From: Actinomycetota bacterium | GTDB lineage: Bacteria; Actinomycetota; Thermoleophilia; Solirubrobacterales; 70-9 | DNA: 40,782 bases | NCBI GenBank assembly: GCA_018268675.1 | Contig: JAFDWB010000063.1 | Span: forward strand, 1-40,782 | Reading direction: 5' to 3' | In this document: positions 21,810-30,439 of the stretch, piece by piece | Numbering within the stretch: the stretch's first letter is position 1 | How the letters are laid out: every line of letters starts with the position of its first letter | Made by a program: the position numbers and the translations under genes | Notes under the pieces: model-generated | What the model was told of the DNA's origin: nothing | The model's input: only the letters and a program-made list of their open reading frames with translations | Database searches by the model: none

Positions 21810-22934
21810 ATGCCCCCTCTGATCACCCCCACGGAAGCACTCGAGCTCGGCCGCCTCACCGAGCCTGCCGAGATCGAGGCGCTGGTCGAGCGCGCCTGGG
21901 CGCTGCGCCAGGAGAACTTCGGCGACTCGACCGACATGTGCTCGCTGGTCAACGCCAAGTCGGGCGGCTGCGCCGAGGACTGCGGCTTCTGCGCCCAGAG
22001 CCGCTACGCCGACGCCGACACGGTGATGCACGCGATGATGGAGCCGGAGCAGATCCTCGAACACGCGAAGGCCGCCGAGGCGGCGGGTGCCCACCGCTTC
22101 TGCATGGTGACCCAGGGGCAGGGCCTCTCCAGACGCGACTTCCAGAAGATCCTCGAAGGCGCCGAGCTGGTCGCCTCCGAGACCAACCTGAAGCGCTGCA
22201 TCTCGATCGGCCACATGTCGACCGAGCGGGCCAGGGCGCTGAAGGAGGCCGGGGTCCAGCGCGTCCACCACAACGTCGAGTCGGCCCGCTCCTACTACCC
22301 CGAGGTCTCGAGCACGGTCCGCTACGAGGGCCGGCTGCGGACGATCCAGGCGGTCAAGGAGGCGGGCCTCGAGACCTGCGTCGGCGGCATCCTGAACCTC
22401 GGCGAGACCGAGGAGCAGCGGGTCGAGATGGCCTTCGAGCTGTCCGAGATAAACCCCACCTCGGTGCCGATCAACCTGCTGATCCCGAAGGCGGGGACGA
22501 AGTTCGGCGAGCGCGAGGTGATGGAGCCGCTCGAGGTCGTCAAGTGGATCGCGATCTTCCGGCTGATCATCCCCGGGGCGCTCTTCCGGCTCTGCGGCGG
22601 CCGGGTCGAGAACCTCGGCGACCTCCACCGGATGGCGGTCAAGGCGGGCCTCAACGGGGTGATGATGGGGAACTTCCTGACCACGCTGGGGGCCGAGCCC
22701 GCCGAGGACCGGGCGATGTTCGAGGAGCTCGGGCTGAACGTCGCCCGCCAGCCCGACAACGGCTCCAACCCGCGCCCCGACAACCGCTCCGGCCACCTCG
22801 AGGGCGACACCCCGAGGACGCCGATGGAGGCGCTGATCGACCACCAGGACGAGGCGCCCATGTGGGACCCCTCGACGCAGCTGCGGGTGGTGAAGAAGGG
22901 CGAGCGCCACCCGTCCTACCCCACCGCGGCCTAG
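21810..22934 (+). CDS. bioB: Biotin synthase
   Basis: 374 residues, radical-SAM enzyme inserting sulfur into dethiobiotin. The SAM-cluster cysteines are C54, C58 and C61 (GGCAEDCGFCAQS). NVESARSYYPEV and the GGRVENLGDLH block match BioB. The C-terminus is about 30 residues longer than in E. coli. AAGGAAG lies just before ATG 21810. First gene of bioB-bioF-bioD; no BirA box could be recognised upstream. Confidence 0.96.
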   Translation: MPPLITPTEALELGRLTEPAEIEALVERAWALRQENFGDSTDMCSLVNAKSGGCAEDCGFCAQSRYADADTVMHAMMEPEQILEHAKAAEAAGAHRFCMVTQGQGLSRRDFQKILEGAELVASETNLKRCISIGHMSTERARALKEAGVQRVHHNVESARSYYPEVSSTVRYEGRLRTIQAVKEAGLETCVGGILNLGETEEQRVEMAFELSEINPTSVPINLLIPKAGTKFGEREVMEPLEVVKWIAIFRLIIPGALFRLCGGRVENLGDLHRMAVKAGLNGVMMGNFLTTLGAEPAEDRAMFEELGLNVARQPDNGSNPRPDNRSGHLEGDTPRTPMEALIDHQDEAPMWDPSTQLRVVKKGERHPSYPTAA

Positions 22935-22943
22935 GGGCAAGGG

Positions 22944-24128
22944 GTGACCGACGTCGCGGCCCACCTCGAGGAGCTGCGCGAGCGCGGCCTCCACCGGCGG
23001 CTGCGGCTGATCGAAGGACCGCAGGGGCCGCGCGTCCTCCTCGACGGGCACGAGGTGCTCCTGCTCTGCTCCAACGATTACCTCGGACTGTCGGGCGACC
23101 CGCGGGTGCGCGAGGCGGCGGCGGAGACGGCGCTCCGCTGGGGCGCCGGGGCGGGCGCGTCGCGGCTGATCAGCGGCAACATGGCGCCGCACCGGGAGCT
23201 GGAGGAGGCGCTGGCGGCGTTCAAGGGGTACGAGCGGGCGCTCCTCTTCGGCTCCGGCTACCTGGCGAACTCGGGGACGATCGCGGCGCTGGCGGGGCCC
23301 GGCGAGGTCGTCTTCTCCGACGAGCTGAACCATGCCTCGATCATCGACGGCTGCCGGTTGGCGCGGGCGCAGACCGCGATCTACCGCCACAACGACGTCG
23401 ACCACCTGGAGTCGCTGCTGCGCGGCGCGGCGGGGGCGCCGGCGCTGATCGTCACCGACGGGGTCTTCTCGATGGACGGCGACGTCGCGCCGCTGGCCGA
23501 GCTGCTGGAGCTGGCGCGGCGCCACGGAGCGCGGCTGATGGTCGACGAGGCGCACGCGACCGGGGTCCTCGGGCCGGGCGGGCGTGGCACCGTCGCCGCG
23601 GCGGGGCTCTCCGGCGACGTCGACGTGGTGATGGGGACGATGGGCAAGGCGCTCGGGTCCTACGGCGCCTACATCTGCGCGAGCGCCGAGACCGTCGACT
23701 ACCTGGTCAACCGGGCGCGCCAGTTCGTCTTCTCGACCGCGCCGCCGCCGCCCGTGGTGGGCGCCGCGCGGGCGGCGCTCGGGGTGCTCGAAGCCGAGCC
23801 GGAGCGGGTCGACGCGCTGCTGGCGAACGCGCTGGCGCTGCGCGACGGCCTGGTCGCCGAGGGCCTCGACGCGGGTGCCTCCATCACCCAGATCGTGCCG
23901 ATCGAGGTCGGCGAGGCCGAGCCGACGATGGCGCTCTGCGAGCGGGTGCTGGAGCGCGGCGTCTTCGCCCAGGGCATCCGTCCGCCGACCGTGCCGGAGG
24001 GGTCCTCGCGCCTGCGCTTCACGGTGATGGCGACGCACGACCCGGCCGAGCTCCGCCGCGCGGCGCACGAGGTCGGCGAGGCGGCGCGCGAGATCGGCCT
24101 GCTGAAGGCCCCGACGATCGCCGCCTGA
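22944..24128 (+). CDS. bioF: 8-amino-7-oxononanoate synthase
   Basis: 394 residues, PLP-dependent alpha-oxoamine synthase joining pimeloyl thioester and alanine. The PLP lysine is K235 in GTMGKALGSYG, with DEAHATG (D201, H204) and CSNDYLGL also conserved. GTG 22944 start, 9 nt after bioB. Related KBL or serine palmitoyltransferase functions are ruled out mainly by the bio neighbours. Confidence 0.94.
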   Translation: MTDVAAHLEELRERGLHRRLRLIEGPQGPRVLLDGHEVLLLCSNDYLGLSGDPRVREAAAETALRWGAGAGASRLISGNMAPHRELEEALAAFKGYERALLFGSGYLANSGTIAALAGPGEVVFSDELNHASIIDGCRLARAQTAIYRHNDVDHLESLLRGAAGAPALIVTDGVFSMDGDVAPLAELLELARRHGARLMVDEAHATGVLGPGGRGTVAAAGLSGDVDVVMGTMGKALGSYGAYICASAETVDYLVNRARQFVFSTAPPPPVVGAARAALGVLEAEPERVDALLANALALRDGLVAEGLDAGASITQIVPIEVGEAEPTMALCERVLERGVFAQGIRPPTVPEGSSRLRFTVMATHDPAELRRAAHEVGEAAREIGLLKAPTIAA

Positions 24129-24892
24129 TGCCGGGGCTCTCGCGCGAGCAGTGGCAGGTCTCGACGCGGCGCGACGAGACGGGCCAGGCGGCGCGGGCGA
24201 GCGGCATCTTCGTCACCGGGACCGGCACCGGGGTCGGCAAGACCGTCGTCGCCGCGGCGATCGCCCGCACCCTGGCGGCGGACGGCCGGAGCGTCGCCGT
24301 CTTCAAGCCGGCCGTGACCGGCATGGACGAGTTCCCGGGCTACGAGGAATCGGCCGCGCGGGATCTGGGCTCGGCGGCGAACCTCCCCGACCAGGCCCTG
24401 CTCCGCCTCGCCGCGGGCTGCCCGCAGACCGACGACGAGATCGCTCCCTACCGCTACGGCCCGCCGATGTCCCCCCACCTGGCCGCCGGGCTGGCGGGCG
24501 AGGAGATCGACCCGGAGCGGGTGATGGCCGCCGCGCGCGCGGCGGCGACCGGCGTCGAGGCGATCGTCTGCGAGGGCGTCGGCGGCCTCCTCGTCCCCCT
24601 CTCCCCCAGCTGGAGCGTGCGCTCCTTCGCGGTCGAGCTCGGCTACCCGGTCGTGATCGTCGCCCCGCCGGGCCTCGGCACGATCAACCACACCCTGCTC
24701 ACGGTCGAATCGGTCCGCCAGGTGGGCCTCAAGATCGCCGCCATCGTCCTCGACCCCTGGCCCGCCGAGCCGACCCCGATCGAGGCCGACAACCGCGAGA
24801 CGATCGCCGCCCTCTCCGGCGCCCCGGTCCTGACCTTCCCCCGCGTCGACCTGGCGGAGCTCGGGAGCTGGCCGGAGCTGCGGGTTCCCTAG
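24128..24892 (+). CDS. bioD: ATP-dependent dethiobiotin synthetase
   Basis: 254 residues. The P-loop GTGTGVGKT is at 31-39, preceded by about 25 extra residues compared with most BioD proteins. Also seen: FKPAVTGMDE, YGPPMSPHLAA, VCEGVGGLLVPL. It closes the ureido ring of dethiobiotin using CO2 and ATP. The ATG shares its A with the bioF TGA (TGATG), supporting the long N-terminus. Confidence 0.93.
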   Translation: MPGLSREQWQVSTRRDETGQAARASGIFVTGTGTGVGKTVVAAAIARTLAADGRSVAVFKPAVTGMDEFPGYEESAARDLGSAANLPDQALLRLAAGCPQTDDEIAPYRYGPPMSPHLAAGLAGEEIDPERVMAAARAAATGVEAIVCEGVGGLLVPLSPSWSVRSFAVELGYPVVIVAPPGLGTINHTLLTVESVRQVGLKIAAIVLDPWPAEPTPIEADNRETIAALSGAPVLTFPRVDLAELGSWPELRVP

Positions 24893-24951
24893 CTCGCGCC
24901 CGAGGTAAGGGACGGGCCGCGAGGGTCTGGCGGAAGCGTCGCCGGAACGGT

Positions 24952-25045
24952 CACGGAAGTCCGACTTCGTGTCGTCCCTGTGCCCGCTTCCCCACGAACC
25001 CGTCACGCCCAGGATGCAACTCGGACGGCCGCCCTCGTCCGTCCC
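24952..25045. repeat. Dispersed intergenic repeat, copy B
   Basis: Shares CACGGAAGT (24952-24960), a 27/31 block (24980-25010) and an exact 16-mer (25019-25034) with copy A at 86-245, in the same order. It lacks the 49-bp hairpin insertion present in copy A. Located between the convergent bioD and yaaA-like genes. Confidence 0.65.
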
Positions 25046-25065
25046 TCCCCCACCCGAACCACCCG

Positions 25066-25806
25066 TCAGCCCGAAACGATCACATCCAAATACCCCGGCG
25101 CGAGCTCAACCCTGAACCCCGCCGCCTCCGCGACCCCCGCGGCCCCCTCCGCATCCTCCGGCACCGCCTTCGCCTCCAGCAGCGCCCGCGCCACGTCGCC
25201 GCGGACCGCCTTCGCCATATGGCTCACCGGCTTGCGCTTGCCCCTCGACTCGGTGAAGGCGCGCACCACGAGCTGGGTCGCGCGCTGCGGCTTCCAGGCC
25301 GCCGCGTAGGCGCCGGAGCGCATGTCGACCACCAGGGTGCCCGGCTTGTCGGGGAGCGCCTCGGCGAGGGCCGGGCGCCAGAAGGCGGCGAGGCCGCCGA
25401 TCCCGTCCAGCTTCGCTTTCGCCGAGAGGCGGTAATAGGGGATGCGGTCGGCGGGCCGGACGACGCCCCAGAGAGCCGAGGCGATCAGCACCCGGCCCTG
25501 GGCGCGCGTGGGGAGCTCCGGGAGCCTCAGGCGGTCGTAGAGGACGCCGGTGTAGACCTCGGCGGCCGGGCCCGCCGGGGCGGAGGTCAGCTGCGCGTCG
25601 ACGGCGACCTCGCCGGCCTGGCCCTTCGAGACCGCGAGCATCGAGACCGCCCGCGCGAGCGGCAGCTCCGCGAGCGCGCCGAGCGCCCCGAGCAGCTTCC
25701 GCCTCGACTCCGTCAGCGAGTCGGCGTAGGCGAGCTCGTCGAGCGCCACGGGTGCGCCCGTCGCGGGCGCGGTCTTCCCCTCCGACGGGGGCAGCAGGAT
25801 CAGCAT
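25066..25806 (-). CDS. yaaA: Peroxide stress protein YaaA family (DUF328)
   Basis: 246 residues beginning MLILLPPSEGKT, the YaaA signature. Other family blocks: YTGVLYDRLRL, RPADRIPYYRLSAK, FWRPALAEAL and MRSGAYAAAW. In E. coli YaaA lowers free iron during H2O2 stress and binds DNA. It is encoded on the minus strand between bioD and bioA, so it interrupts the biotin cluster. Confidence 0.85.
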   Translation of the reverse strand: MLILLPPSEGKTAPATGAPVALDELAYADSLTESRRKLLGALGALAELPLARAVSMLAVSKGQAGEVAVDAQLTSAPAGPAAEVYTGVLYDRLRLPELPTRAQGRVLIASALWGVVRPADRIPYYRLSAKAKLDGIGGLAAFWRPALAEALPDKPGTLVVDMRSGAYAAAWKPQRATQLVVRAFTESRGKRKPVSHMAKAVRGDVARALLEAKAVPEDAEGAAGVAEAAGFRVELAPGYLDVIVSG

Positions 25807-25906
25807 CGGGGCAGGACATTAAGAGACCTGCCGGCGCGAAGACCCGCGCGGCCGTGTCACGGCCCCCGCATCGATCTCCGCACTCCCGTGCAATTGTTCC
25901 CGGGCG

Positions 25907-27211
25907 ATGAGCGACGCCGCCCGGCTCAACCAGCTCGACCAGAAGTTCGTCTGGCACCCGTTCACCCAGCAGCTGGGGTGGAGCGAGGAAGAGCCGCTGA
26001 TGATCGAGCGCGGCGAGGGCGTCCACCTTTTCGACGTCGAGGGCAACCGCTACATCGACGGCACCTCCTCGCTCTGGTGCAACGTCCACGGCCATCACCA
26101 TCCCGACCTCGACCGGGCGGCCCGCGAGCAGCTCGACAAGTTCGCGCACTCGACCATGCTCGGCCTCTCCCACCCCGGCGCGACGGAGCTGGCGGCGCGC
26201 CTGATCGAGATCGCGCCGGCCGGCCTGCGGCGCGTCTTCTACTCCGACTCCGGCTCGACCGCCGCCGAGATCGCCCTGAAGATGGCCTTCCAGTACCACC
26301 AGCAACGCGGCGACACCGCCCGCACCCGCTTCGTCCGCCTGCGCGAGGCCTACCACGGCGACACGCTCGGCTCGGTCTCGGTCGGCGGCATCGACCTCTT
26401 CCACGCGACCTACCGGCCGCTCCTCTTCGACACCCTGGCGGCGGAGCCCGGCGACGCCGAGCACATGGAGCGACTGCTGAGCGCCCACGAGGGCGAGATC
26501 GCGGCGGTGATCATGGAGCCGCTGGTGCAGGGCGCCGGAGGAATGATCGTCCACCCCGAGGGCTACCTGCGCGCGGTCCGCGAGCTCTGCGACCGCCACG
26601 GGGTGCTGCTGATCTGTGACGAGGTGGCGACGGGATTCGGCCGGACCGGGACGATGTTCGCGGTCGAACGCGAAGCGGTCGCGCCGGACTTCCTCTGCCT
26701 CGCCAAGGGGATCACCGGCGGCTACCTGCCGCTCGCGGCGACCCTCACGACCGAGGCGGTCTACGACGGTTTCCTCGGCGCGCCGGCGGAGGCGAAAACC
26801 TTCTTCCACGGCCACACCTACACCGGCAATGCGGTCGCCTGCGCGGTCGCGCTCGCCAACCTCGAAGTCTTCGAGCGCGAGCGCACGATCGAGCGCCTGC
26901 AGCCGAAGATCGCCCTCCTGGACCGCCGCCTCGCCGAGATCGCCGAGCTGCCGGGCGTCACCGAGGTCCGCTCGCGGGGCGTCATGGTCGGCATCGATCT
27001 CGGCGCCCACGACCCCGAACTGCGTCTCGGCCACCGGGTGACGCTCGAGGCCCGCCGGCGCGGCGCCCTGATCCGCCCCCTCGGCGACGTCGTCGTCCTC
27101 ATGCCGCCCCTGGCGATCAGCGAGGAAAAGCTCGAAACCCTCCTCGACGTCACCGCCGACTCGATCGCCGCCGCCCTCGCCGCTGTTGATGGGCCGAAAA
27201 CCCGCCTATAG
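25907..27211 (+). CDS. bioA: Adenosylmethionine-8-amino-7-oxononanoate aminotransferase
   Basis: 434 residues, class III PLP aminotransferase making DAPA from KAPA with SAM as amino donor. VWHPFTQ at the N-terminus is specific for BioA, and the PLP lysine is K267 in CLAKGITGGYLPLA with D238 (CDEVATGFGRTG). It has its own promoter space of about 100 bp shared with divergent yaaA. That space contains a small dyad GGCAGG-N11-CCTGCC (25810-25832). The last codons lie in the stem of the terminator-like hairpin at 27185-27233. Confidence 0.94.
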   Translation: MSDAARLNQLDQKFVWHPFTQQLGWSEEEPLMIERGEGVHLFDVEGNRYIDGTSSLWCNVHGHHHPDLDRAAREQLDKFAHSTMLGLSHPGATELAARLIEIAPAGLRRVFYSDSGSTAAEIALKMAFQYHQQRGDTARTRFVRLREAYHGDTLGSVSVGGIDLFHATYRPLLFDTLAAEPGDAEHMERLLSAHEGEIAAVIMEPLVQGAGGMIVHPEGYLRAVRELCDRHGVLLICDEVATGFGRTGTMFAVEREAVAPDFLCLAKGITGGYLPLAATLTTEAVYDGFLGAPAEAKTFFHGHTYTGNAVACAVALANLEVFERERTIERLQPKIALLDRRLAEIAELPGVTEVRSRGVMVGIDLGAHDPELRLGHRVTLEARRRGALIRPLGDVVVLMPPLAISEEKLETLLDVTADSIAAALAAVDGPKTRL

Positions 27212-27233
27212 GTCCGGTTTTCGGCCCATCAAC
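27185..27233. terminator. 18-bp perfect hairpin with the bioA stop codon in its loop
   Basis: Arms 27185-27202 and 27216-27233 are exact reverse complements with a 13-nt loop. The bioA TAG (27209-27211) lies in the loop, so the left arm encodes the last residues of BioA. The stem is unusually A/T-containing at its inner end (GAAAACC/GGTTTTC). Most likely a terminator for bioA; the sigma gene begins 31 nt later. Confidence 0.65.
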
Positions 27234-27264
27234 CTGGCGGCCCGGGCGGGAGGAAGATTCACCT

Positions 27265-27834
27265 GTGATCTTTCGGGGAGACCGCCGTAGTACGGGCGTG
27301 GGTGAGACCGCGGTCGCAGAGGCGAGGGAGGCTCCGGGGAAGGCCGAGGTGGCGTTCGACCGGCTCTACCGGACGAGCCGGGACGACGTCTATGCCTATG
27401 TGGCCGGAATGCTCCGCGACGGGCCGGCGGCGGAGGAAGTGACCGCGACCGCGTTCGAGCGCGCCTACCGGAAGCGGCACCGCTTCGACCCGGGCCGGGG
27501 GGAGCCGCGTGCCTGGCTCTTCGGCATCGCCCGCAACGCGGCGCTCGACGAGCTGCGGCGCCGCGGCCGCCAGACCGAGCTGGCCACCGAGCCCGCCGAT
27601 CTCGACGGCGTCGCGGTCGAGGCGGGGGCCGAGCAAGCGGAGCGGCGGCTCGCCCTGCGCGCCGCGCTCGCCCACCTCGCGCCGCGCGACCGCGAGCTGA
27701 TCGCGCTCAAGTTCTTCGCCGGGCTCGACAACGCCGAGATCGCCGCCGTCCTCGGGATCAGCGAGTCGAACGCCGGCACCCGGCTGCACCGCGCCGTGAC
27801 CAAGTTGAGGGAGGCCCTCGATGGATCGATTTGA
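27265..27834 (+). CDS. ECF-type RNA polymerase sigma factor
   Basis: 189 residues from GTG 27265, with GGAGG about 11 nt upstream. Sigma region 2: LYRTSRDDVYAYVAGMLRD...AEEVTATAFERAY (about 33-70), then WLFGIARNAALDELRRR. Region 4: LAPRDRELIALKFFAGLDNAEIAAVLGISESNAGTRLHRA (about 137-176). No extra C-terminal domain. Overlaps the DUF4349 gene by 14 nt, so that membrane protein is its probable anti-sigma factor. Confidence 0.9.
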   Translation: MIFRGDRRSTGVGETAVAEAREAPGKAEVAFDRLYRTSRDDVYAYVAGMLRDGPAAEEVTATAFERAYRKRHRFDPGRGEPRAWLFGIARNAALDELRRRGRQTELATEPADLDGVAVEAGAEQAERRLALRAALAHLAPRDRELIALKFFAGLDNAEIAAVLGISESNAGTRLHRAVTKLREALDGSI

Positions 27835-29047
27835 CGACGAGACCATGTTCGCCGAGCTGCGGGCGCTGCGCCCGGCGCCGCGGCCGGAGTTCGCGGCCAA
27901 GCTCGACGAACGCGCCGCCGCGGGCTTCCCGCGCGGCGCGTCGCCGTCCGCCGGCCCCTTCGCCCGGCTCGCCGACCGCCGGCGGGCGCTGAGCCCGCGC
28001 CACCGGCTCGTGCCGGTGCTCGCCACCGCCCTCGCCACGCTGGTCGTGGCGACCGCGGCCGTCTCGATCTCGCAGTCCGGGGGCGGATCGAACGCCACCG
28101 AAGACGCCTCGCTGGGCATGGTGGCCGGCCAACGGTCCCACGGTCCCGCCGAACCGGCTGGACCTGCCACGCAGGCAGCACCGGCGCCGACCCACCCGCC
28201 GCAAACCCACCACGGCGGCCACGCCGCGCGCAAGTCGGGCGGCGGGACGTCCAGCGGCGAAACGGTCCACGAAGCGGAACTCCCGGCCATCGCCAACGCG
28301 CCGGCGGCGGGAGTCGAAAGTGCCGCGGGAGCCGCGGAAGGCGCCCCCCAGACCACCCACCGCGACATCGAACGCTCCGCCTCCGTCGTCCTCGGCACCA
28401 AACCGGGCGAAGTCTCGGCCGCGGCGGCGAAGGTCTTCGAAGCGGTCCACGCGGCCAACGGGGTCGTCCTGCACTCCAAGGTGCAGAGCGGCAGCAGCGG
28501 GGCGACCGGGGCCTACTTCGACCTCCTGATCCCGAGCGCCAAGCTCGGCGAAGCGCTGGCGGCCTTCTCCTCGATCGCCGAAGTGCGCGAACGCCACGAC
28601 TCGACCAACGACATCACCGCACCGACGGTGAGCGCGGCCGAAGAACTGCGCGATTCCAACGCGGCGATCGAAGGCCTGTTGAAGGAGCTCGGCGCCTCCG
28701 AAACGGAAGCCGAACGGGAAGCGGTCGAAGCCCAGCTCCGCGAAGAGCGCCGCCGGCACGCCGCGATCCGCGCCCGCCTCGACCACCTCGACCAACGCGC
28801 GTCGATGTCGGAAGTCACGGTCCGGATCGTCACCGGGCGCGGCGCCGGCGTCACGCCCCCGCCGCCGGGCCCCGGCAGCTGGGGGATCGGCAACGCGCTC
28901 CGCGACGCCGGCCACATCCTCACGATCGCCGCCGCGATCTCCCTGATCGCGCTCGCGCTCCTCACCCCGATCGCCCTCCTCGCCCTCGCCCTCTGGCTCG
29001 CCAACCGCTTCCGCGTCCGCCGCCTCCGCGAGCGCACCCTCGGCTGA
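27821..29047 (+). CDS. DUF4349 membrane protein, probable anti-sigma factor
   Basis: 408 residues. A cytosolic N-terminus (1-62) contains MFAELRALRPAPRPEFAAKLDERAA, a pattern common in anti-sigma proteins without a zinc motif. TM1 lies at about 64-84. A low-complexity Pro/Ala/Gly/His linker follows. The extracytoplasmic DUF4349 domain (about 180-340) includes a coiled coil with many Glu and Arg residues, and a second membrane span lies near 365-395. Overlap with the ECF sigma gene supports a signalling pair that senses an envelope condition. The anti-sigma role is inference. Confidence 0.82.
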   Translation: MDRFDDETMFAELRALRPAPRPEFAAKLDERAAAGFPRGASPSAGPFARLADRRRALSPRHRLVPVLATALATLVVATAAVSISQSGGGSNATEDASLGMVAGQRSHGPAEPAGPATQAAPAPTHPPQTHHGGHAARKSGGGTSSGETVHEAELPAIANAPAAGVESAAGAAEGAPQTTHRDIERSASVVLGTKPGEVSAAAAKVFEAVHAANGVVLHSKVQSGSSGATGAYFDLLIPSAKLGEALAAFSSIAEVRERHDSTNDITAPTVSAAEELRDSNAAIEGLLKELGASETEAEREAVEAQLREERRRHAAIRARLDHLDQRASMSEVTVRIVTGRGAGVTPPPPGPGSWGIGNALRDAGHILTIAAAISLIALALLTPIALLALALWLANRFRVRRLRERTLG

Positions 29048-29053
29048 CCCCCC

Positions 29054-29109
29054 CGGGGTGCTTCCGAGCTTTTCCGCCACATATGGCGGGAAAGATCGGA
29101 AGCACCCCG
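29054..29109. terminator. Long hairpin after the sigma/DUF4349 operon
   Basis: The outer stem 29054-29067/29096-29109 is perfect (14 bp). Pairing continues inward to 29079/29084 with one mismatch and one wobble. The hairpin starts 6 nt after the DUF4349 stop and ends 12 nt before the Nudix gene start, so it probably ends the sigma operon transcript. Confidence 0.65.
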
Positions 29110-29121
29110 TAGGGTTGGGCG

Positions 29122-29769
29122 ATGGCGGAGAGCCTCGAAAAGCCCGTCACGCCGCGGCCCGCCGCGTCGATCGTCCTCATGCGGCGCGGGGGCAGGCACT
29201 CCCAGCGCGCGCTCGAGGTGCTGATGCTGCGGCGCTCCCCCGCCGCCGCGTTCTTCCCCGGTGCCTGGGTCTTCCCCGGCGGCGCGGTCGAGACCGAGGA
29301 CGGCGAGGGCCCGGACGGCTTCCGCGCCTGCGCGGTCCGCGAGCTCCGCGAGGAGGCCGGGATCGACCTCGCCCCCGACGAGGAGCTCGTCCCCTTCTGC
29401 CGCTGGATCACCCCGGAGGCGATCCCGAAGCGCTTCGACGCCTGGTTCTTCATGGCCCTCGCCCCCGCCCACACGCCGCCGCGGATCGATGGCGGCGAGA
29501 TCGTCGACGCGCGCTGGTTCGAGCCCGCCGCGGCGCTCGCCGGCGCCGACGACGGCGAGATCGGCCTCGCCTTCCCCACCCGCGTGCAGCTCGGCTGGCT
29601 CGCCGAGCACCCGACCTCGGCCGCCGCCCTCGACGCCTACCGCGGCCGCGCGCTCGAGCCGCTCGTGCCGGAGATCGTCGGCGAGGGCGCGGAGGCCCGC
29701 GTCGTCCTCCCGGGCTTCGGCGACTCCTTCGACCTCAAGAACCTGGCCGAGGACCTTCGCCCTGACTGA
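29122..29769 (+). CDS. NUDIX hydrolase (NUDT19-like)
   Basis: 215 residues. The Nudix box is GGAVETED followed by an insertion and then RELREEAGI (about 53-84), a spacing seen in the NUDT19 group. EVLMLRRSPAAAFFPGAWVFPGG precedes it. NUDT19 homologues hydrolyse CoA and acyl-CoA diphosphates, which would suit the acyl-CoA-rich neighbourhood, but the substrate is not determined. The end overlaps the convergent DUF3137-like gene by 35 bp. Confidence 0.85.
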   Translation: MAESLEKPVTPRPAASIVLMRRGGRHSQRALEVLMLRRSPAAAFFPGAWVFPGGAVETEDGEGPDGFRACAVRELREEAGIDLAPDEELVPFCRWITPEAIPKRFDAWFFMALAPAHTPPRIDGGEIVDARWFEPAAALAGADDGEIGLAFPTRVQLGWLAEHPTSAAALDAYRGRALEPLVPEIVGEGAEARVVLPGFGDSFDLKNLAEDLRPD

Positions 29770-30439
29770 CCGCGTCGGGGAACGGCGCCAGCCCCGCGTG
29801 CCAGGGGCCGGGCGGGTAGGTGTGGATGCCGCTCTCGTCCATCTCCGACTGGATCCGCGCGAACAACTGCCCGGCGTTCTTGAGCGCCGCTTTCAGCTCT
29901 TCCTCGGAGCGCTCGCGCAGCCGCCAGAGGAACCACAGCTGGCGGTCGTTGACGCCGAAGTCGATCTCTCCGGTCATCGTCGTCACCCAGGCGAGGAAGC
30001 CCGGCCCGAAGAGCTCGCGGAGCGCGACCGGGTCGAAGTCCTTCGGCACGGTCGTCCAGAAGCGTTTGTTGAAGTCGAGCGACTCGAATTCGACCTTGCG
30101 AGAGAAGCGCTGCGCGACGTGCTCGGCCCCCTCGATCGACTCGACGTTGAAGGCGGGGACGACCTGGGCCAGGTCGGGCATGTGGGACTTCGCGAGGATC
30201 GCCGTCGGCAGCACCGCCTTGTTCAGGAAGCCGCCCATCTCGCGTTCGTCGGCGTCGCAGGAGGAGCCCCAGAAGCCTTCGACGAGTTGGCCCGTGAGCC
30301 GGTTCGAGCCGCCGACGCAGAGCGCCACCGGCCCGTCTTTCGGGTTGATGCCGCCGATCGGCTCGTAGGTGACCCCGTGCCGCTCGCCGTAGCGGCGCAC
30401 CAGGTCGGCCCAGTCCTGCGCTTCCTGCTTGGCGCCCAT
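29735..30439 (-). CDS. DUF3137-like protein next to lemA
   Basis: 234 residues with no signal peptide or clear membrane span. The central part, FSRKVEFESLDFNKRFW, then LRELFGPGFLAWVTTM and IDFGVNDRQLWFLW, resembles DUF3137 (FES-x-x-FN-x-x-F pattern). DUF3137 proteins are often encoded beside lemA. Here it is divergent from lemA, with a 100-bp promoter space. Function unknown; family assignment is from memory of the motif and needs a profile search. Confidence 0.6.
   Translation of the reverse strand: MGAKQEAQDWADLVRRYGERHGVTYEPIGGINPKDGPVALCVGGSNRLTGQLVEGFWGSSCDADEREMGGFLNKAVLPTAILAKSHMPDLAQVVPAFNVESIEGAEHVAQRFSRKVEFESLDFNKRFWTTVPKDFDPVALRELFGPGFLAWVTTMTGEIDFGVNDRQLWFLWRLRERSEEELKAALKNAGQLFARIQSEMDESGIHTYPPGPWHAGLAPFPDAVSQGEGPRPGS

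What the first reader, a model, noticed from the sequence alone, without database searches (positions are those of the whole stretch)
27265..29047. ECF sigma factor paired with a DUF4349 two-span membrane protein
The genes overlap by 14 nt. The membrane protein has a cytosolic anti-sigma-like tail, a low-complexity linker and an extracytoplasmic DUF4349 coiled-coil domain, a sensor type not among the classical zinc anti-sigma factors. It could define a distinct envelope-stress pair.
Basis: partly seen in the sequence, partly recalled or inferred. Interest (0 to 1): 0.5.

Follow-up and report, generated by a model that had tools for sequence, protein, structure and literature searches.

The report
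Sigma factor with membrane sensor partner
A gene pair in a soil-type bacterium that very likely works as an on-switch for cell-surface genes: a sigma factor held by a membrane protein whose outer part is an unstudied domain, DUF4349, kept together in sampled relatives across a bacterial class.

Summary
The pair is real. The ECF sigma gene and a two-span DUF4349 protein overlap by exactly 14 nt. In the window's order the sigma precedes DUF4349 in 86 of 91 fetched loci (three of five misses are contig edges); searching with the sigma alone, 79 of 80 loci (best 80 of 138 relatives) carry DUF4349 directly downstream. Sampled sigmas of these pairs form one clade, apart from 21 other sigma-type proteins of the window's genome.

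One correction: the GTG at 27265 lies in a conserved promoter, consensus [C/T]GTGA[C/T]-N16-CGTAGT; the likely start is GTG 27298. A loose form (NGTGAY-N15-19-CGTA) stands at 80 of 85 order loci, 32 of 33 of a second lineage and 4 of 4 of a third. With a start codon required 6 nt on, the strict form hits mostly once per genome that has it; all 11 extra sites head ORFs with an exported or membrane-anchored N-terminus.

Best reading: an autoregulated envelope-stress ECF/anti-sigma pair, non-zinc tail, DUF4349 sensor. Binding, signal and release are inferred. Most sampled DUF4349 genes outside the class lack a sigma (65 of 69), but two or three other ECF lineages have recruited the domain.

The parts
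27264..27269 (+). predicted -35 element TGTGAT of the autoregulatory promoter
   Evidence: loose form NGTGAY-N15-19-CGTA at 80 of 85 order loci, 32 of 33 second-lineage and 4 of 4 third-lineage loci; seven permuted-motif controls: 0 in the order, at most 2 of 33 in the second lineage
27286..27291 (+). predicted -10 element CGTAGT, spacer 16 nt
   Evidence: with a start codon at +6 and up to 3 mismatches the own genome has only this site
27298..27834 (+).
   Evidence: in-frame start codon 6 nt after the -10 in 71 of 79 order loci with the motif; Pfam r2/r4
27821..29047 (+). putative membrane anti-sigma factor with DUF4349 sensor, 408 aa, overlaps the sigma gene by 14 nt
27821..27955 (+). cytosolic N-terminal tail (residues 1-45): helices 6-16 and 22-33, motif LRxxRPxPxPxFxxxLDxRxxxGF; presumed sigma-binding part
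   Evidence: no zinc motif
28007..28072 (+). membrane span 1 (residues 63-84)
28079..28348 (+). low-complexity, mostly disordered linker (residues 87-176)
28361..28843 (+). extracytoplasmic DUF4349 core (residues 181-341)
   Evidence: Pfam; AlphaFold blocks mostly about 98 pLDDT in the full model, mean 93.6 alone
28616..28804 (+). helical hairpin inserted in DUF4349 (residues 266-328)
28886..29002 (+). membrane span 2 and start of the cytosolic Arg-rich end (residues 356-394)
27185..27233 (.). 18-nt perfect inverted repeat over the end of bioA, ahead of the promoter; possible terminator without T-run (inference)
29049..29114 (.). 31-nt inverted repeat (87%) just after the DUF4349 gene; possible end of the two-gene unit (inference)
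   Evidence: one place in the own genome by exact pattern

Best explanation
An autoregulated ECF sigma factor and its membrane anti-sigma factor form a two-gene unit. At rest, the short cytosolic tail of the DUF4349 protein (two helices, no zinc motif) holds the sigma at the membrane. The DUF4349 domain outside the membrane, set on a flexible linker and anchored by a second span, senses a cell-envelope change. The signal passes through span 1, by cleavage or by a shape change, and frees the sigma. Freed sigma with RNA polymerase recognises [C/T]GTGA[C/T]-N16-CGTAGT, fires its own promoter (near-leaderless mRNA from about GTG 27298) and, in relatives, genes for secreted proteins, lipoproteins and membrane-anchored proteins. 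Shown by sequence: gene pair, overlap, predicted topology, promoter motif, common descent, nature of the extra sites. Inferred: that this sigma reads this motif, binding, release, signal and sense of regulation.
For: Pairing: 86 of 91 order loci; 79 of 80 loci found through the sigma alone, the miss having 120 nt of contig left. One sigma clade for sampled pairs of the class (97/87; 94/88). Overlap of 14 nt in 56 of 86 order loci. Two spans in 114 of 116 partners and at least 38 residues before span 1 in all 116 (116 of 124 paired loci, 8 broken or startless ones left out); 61 of 92 unpaired DUF4349 proteins have no room for such a tail. Promoter: 80 of 85, 32 of 33 and 4 of 4 loci, permuted controls 0 to 2 (which removes one spurious hit). 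With a start codon required at +6 the strict pattern gives 74 hits in 69 of 151 genomes against 1 for the reversed pattern; 67 lie at this sigma gene (placed). They make eight families.
Against: No binding or expression data. The tail profile matches no solved anti-sigma factor and no shared Pfam anti-sigma family. Sigma/tail covariation is inconclusive: 10 of the top 50 pairs against a permutation mean of 4.8, reached in 2 of 200 permutations, with span 2 enriched as well. Without the start-codon requirement a relaxed motif in the genus gives 27 hits: 10 sigma genes, 1 SIMPL gene and 16 others, no more than the 16 hits of the reversed control. No second strict site in the window's own genome, so its regulon is unknown. 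5 of 85 order loci lack the motif. L016 and L045 carry DUF4349 with room upstream and no sigma ORF.
Confidence: 0.78

Rival explanations
1. The DUF4349 protein is not an anti-sigma factor but an exported member of the sigma's regulon (an effector, or a positive co-factor), co-transcribed with it; the sigma is controlled otherwise.
For: The regulon candidates are themselves exported proteins; most sampled DUF4349 proteins outside the branch have no sigma partner; the tail matches no known anti-sigma domain.
Against: All 116 paired forms have a long tail before span 1, with a motif LRxxRPxPxPxF in the order, while 61 of 92 unpaired ones have no room for it; sigma/DUF4349 pairs of other ECF lineages again show a tail before span 1 (read from the translations); stop-start overlap is a usual layout of sigma/anti-sigma genes (general knowledge), and membrane-anchored anti-sigma factors are the commonest known ECF control (PMC8103513 section 7 part 1).
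Confidence: 0.14
2. The sigma protein really starts at GTG 27265 and the conserved stretch is a conserved N-terminal peptide, not a promoter.
For: The frame from the -35 onward is open in the window and in 63 of 79 order loci with the motif.
Against: 16 of 79 have an in-frame stop between the -35 and the sigma while the DNA motif stays; spacers of 17 or 18 nt in the second lineage shift the frame; third-lineage sites lie near 100 nt upstream. The same motif before 11 other genes fits a promoter too, but there the start codon at +6 was part of the search pattern.
Confidence: 0.05
3. A classical zinc-binding (ZAS) redox anti-sigma factor.
For: General layout only.
Against: Hx3Cx2C within the first 120 residues in 0 of 116 partners; the window protein has no cysteine there.
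Confidence: 0.01
4. Chance neighbours.
For: None found.
Confidence: 0.005

Closest known systems
Membrane-anchored ECF/anti-sigma pairs (RpoE-RseA, SigW-RsiW type)
   Same: ECF sigma followed by a membrane protein with a cytosolic tail; predicted autoregulated promoter; exported proteins behind other copies of the promoter
   Different: no zinc signature found; sensor is DUF4349 between two spans; release mechanism untested
BldN-RsbN of Streptomyces (class III anti-sigma domain)
   Same: the sigma's best equivalog-type model is the BldN family TIGR02952 (95.8 bits, under its cut-off of 206.45); a fast-evolving membrane partner next to a conserved sigma, as said of RsbN (PMC4255298, passages): here 54-87% identity to the window for the sigma, 22-72% for the partner (different samples)
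   Different: below the family cut-off; the tail profile hits no anti-sigma chain in the PDB; different outer domain
Canonical DUF4349 proteins (signal-peptide or lipoprotein type)
   Same: same Pfam domain and C-terminal span; one Methylobacterium member has a signal peptide with a predicted lipobox (PMC10924467, passages)
   Different: no sigma neighbour in most sampled loci and no room for a tail in 61 of 92; the domains of the order and the second lineage lie apart from them on the tree (92/96)

Membership tests
ECF sigma factor (group 4 sigma-70) | sigma-2 and sigma-4 domains and little else | tested here: met
   178-189 aa; TIGR02937 104.2 bits over cut-off 42.9
BldN family (TIGR02952) | score over the curated cut-off | tested here: not met
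   95.8 bits against 206.45
Membrane anti-sigma factor | encoded beside its sigma; predicted N-terminal tail, span, outer domain | tested here: met
Membrane anti-sigma factor | binds and inhibits its sigma | not testable with these tools
   covariation inconclusive
Zinc-binding anti-sigma (ZAS) | Hx3Cx2C motif (definition from PMC7406223 section 6 part 1) | tested here: not met
   0 of 116
Class I / II / III anti-sigma domain | helix arrangement around the sigma | tested here: inconclusive
   two short helices predicted; no anti-sigma match in the PDB by sequence profile; complex not modelled
DUF4349 (PF14257) | score over gathering cut-off | tested here: met
   87.6 bits against 27.7
A named ECF group of the published classification | group HMM and gene context | not tested
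   classification paper not held

The most novel reading that the evidence does not exclude
DUF4349 is a portable extracytoplasmic sensor module that ECF sigma systems have recruited repeatedly: the Thermoleophilia clade, a canonical-type sensor in family f9 of the same class, and two to three further ECF lineages of Actinomycetota (L148, L386/L405, L406). The widespread unpaired DUF4349 lipoproteins would then report on the same envelope state through other partners.
Probability: 0.4. Interest if true: 0.62.

Novelty: new variant of a known kind. Interest (0 to 1): 0.47.

Why it matters
It gives DUF4349 a first likely role: only 2 papers of the held library name the domain, neither together with 'sigma factor'. 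It offers a class-wide stress switch in Thermoleophilia with a ready promoter motif, so that regulon, signal and sensor can be tested in cultured Solirubrobacter or Conexibacter.

Tried and rejected
Sigma/tail covariation: the first run put 17 of the top 50 pairs in the tail, but part came from residues coded in the overlap; without these it was 10 of 50 and span 2 was enriched too. Inconclusive. A larger version exceeded the memory limit and was replaced by a reduced-alphabet one.

Fold look-up of DUF4349: no Foldseek match at E 0.001 or better; the VIA-align rows, best Z 10.7 and 10.5, are mainly matches of the helical hairpin, within what its note calls common for helices; no relative named. 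Weak ferredoxin-like hits (ribosomal S6, AdoMet decarboxylase) are not claimed.

Tail against the PDB by profile: seven weak hits, none an anti-sigma factor. Regulon in the window's own genome by motif: only the own site. Relaxed motif without start codon in the genus: non-sigma hits at control level. Synteny: bioA near 18 of 91 order loci and 0 of 35 second-lineage loci, so the biotin genes are not part of the system.

Protein query against genome contigs found no relative; the second scan used a sigma alignment. Recount: one search's 58 of 86 and one search's 81 of 86 each held one spurious hit (L042, too little upstream DNA); one search gives the corrected numbers. The background (22 of 199) held 38 partner genes; without them it is 22 of 161.

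Full report
Observation. Searches confirm an ECF sigma ORF (27265-27834) overlapping a 408-aa DUF4349 ORF (27821-29047) by 14 nt. The genome has one DUF4349 place and 31 places matching sigma region 2.

Conservation of the pair. Of 151 genomes drawn from the order, 95 match PF14257. I fetched 91 loci, one per genome, leaving out four genomes with fragmentary or weak hits (G015, G047, G076, G122; the first two were read later). A sigma of this type lies directly upstream in 86 of 91, counting broken or cut copies. Three misses have under 100 nt of contig upstream (L024, L085, L090); L016 and L045 have room and no sigma ORF, and L045's DUF4349 has a stop inside. The start codon lies 14 nt inside the sigma gene in 56 of 86. 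The reverse test used a sigma alignment alone: the best 80 of 138 relatives in genome contigs, nearly all titled as Solirubrobacterales or less exactly as Actinomycetota, with named Solirubrobacter, Conexibacter, Paraconexibacter and Svornostia. Of these 80, 79 have DUF4349 directly downstream and 75 the promoter motif; the one without DUF4349 has 120 nt of contig left. The two samples partly hold the same species: 145 pairs reduce to 95 distinct partners.

Where DUF4349 has no sigma. In the rest of the class, 33 of 35 low-scoring DUF4349 loci are paired (L165 is a contig edge; L186 is a short ORF with room and no sigma), whereas 31 of 35 high-scoring ones are not; the four exceptions are the four fetched loci of family f9. 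Outside the class, 4 of 69 loci are paired (1 of 30 best-scoring, 3 of 39 spread over the list). The 30-locus samples carry only 1.5 kb flanks. So the domain alone does not predict a sigma, but one branch nearly always has it. Only Actinomycetota were sampled; the controls Haloferax and Synechococcus also have DUF4349, their neighbours were not read.

Descent. On a tree with the window genome's other sigma-type proteins, the sampled paired sigmas of the class (20 order, 16 second lineage, 4 f9, the window's) form one group (97/87; seven rows under 110 residues dropped; 94/88). The trees are unrooted. The DUF4349 domains of the order (98/96) and of the second lineage (100/99) stand apart from the rest (92/96), while the f9 domains group with canonical ones (88/81, four short rows dropped). 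The outside pairs L148, L386/L405 and L406 lie in other ECF branches: three changes on the best tree, two forced by well-supported branches. Hence one old pair, two to three other recruitments, and possibly a sensor exchange in f9.

Promoter and start. The conserved N-terminal 'peptide' of the sigma ORF turned out to be DNA: TGTGAT-N16-CGTAGT followed 6 nt later by ATG or GTG. Corrected counts: the form YGTGAY-N15-17-CGTA[GA][TA] is at 79 of 85 order loci with enough DNA, spacer 16 in 74 and 17 in 5; an in-frame start codon stands 6 nt on in 71 of 79; 16 of 79 have an in-frame stop between the motif and the sigma. The looser NGTGAY-N15-19-CGTA is at 80 of 85 (order), 32 of 33 (second lineage, spacer 17 or 18) and 4 of 4 (f9); seven permuted motifs gave 0 in the order and f9 and at most 2 of 33 in the second lineage. 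RNA start at or next to the codon is inferred.

Regulon. The strict promoter with a start codon required at +6 gives 74 hits in 69 of 151 genomes (reversed control 1). 62 lie upstream of the DUF4349 place on the same contig and strand, and five more are this sigma gene at a contig end or break: 67 in all. The other seven, and four more among seven genomes of one genus (14 hits, 7 sigma genes, 3 already counted, 4 new; control 0), all head an ORF of 138 to 422 codons with a hydrophobic N-terminus. Pfam names DUF6174 in two genomes (E 5.4e-26, 8.3e-24) and a SIMPL protein (2.7e-26); the other three scanned had no match, and the five ORFs left were not scanned. Three look like lipoproteins; one of these looks like a subtilisin inhibitor by eye only. 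Three pairs are orthologous by eye, so there are eight families. A background of 161 automatic ORFs has 22 with such an N-terminus. Against this, a relaxed motif without the start codon gave non-sigma hits at control level in the genus (16 and 16), and the window's genome shows no second site.

Anatomy. AlphaFold2 on 65 relatives gives two tail helices (6-16, 22-33; pLDDT about 70-90), span 1 (63-84), a disordered linker, the DUF4349 core in the order strand-helix-strand-strand-helix-strand-hairpin-strand at mostly about 98, and span 2 (mean 75.0, pTM 0.49); the domain alone gives 93.6. No solved structure clearly matches. Of 116 partners (124 paired loci less 8 broken or startless), none has Hx3Cx2C in the first 120 residues and all have at least 38 residues before span 1.

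Mechanism. The best reading is a membrane anti-sigma factor that frees its sigma on an envelope signal, with positive autoregulation. Whether release is by cleavage or shape change, and what DUF4349 senses, are open.

Literature. Two held papers name DUF4349, neither together with 'sigma factor' (passages read). Searches for Thermoleophilia with sigma factor and ECF, and for Solirubrobacter with anti-sigma factor, found none. The main ECF classification paper is not held and no supplementary tables could be read, so I cannot say that the pair is unlisted there. PMC7406223 (section 6 part 1 and passages), PMC8103513 (section 7 part 1 and passages) and PMC4255298 (passages) were read in part; other papers were seen only as listings.

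Noticed in passing
27185-27233 and 29049-29114: Two strong inverted repeats bracket the two-gene unit (18 nt perfect; 31 nt at 87%); neither was listed by the terminator scan, and the second has one place in the genome by exact pattern. Possibly terminators of a T-poor type.
   Followed up: partly
   Followed up: no
29735-30439 (-): 234-aa ORF without a Pfam match, yet with relatives in 19 of 91 order loci.
   Followed up: no
L282: A record titled Bifidobacterium breve carries this pair and a promoter-like motif; the label is probably wrong.
   Followed up: no
21810-27211: Biotin-type genes lie upstream with a yaaA gene on the opposite strand between them; the class-III aminotransferase (bioA by reading, Aminotran_3) has relatives in 18 of 91 order loci. 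The bio names come from reading the translations.
   Followed up: partly
L148, L386, L405, L406: Separate ECF/DUF4349 gene pairs in other Actinomycetota (4-nt overlap possible in three; gap of 16 or 22 nt in L405).
   Followed up: partly
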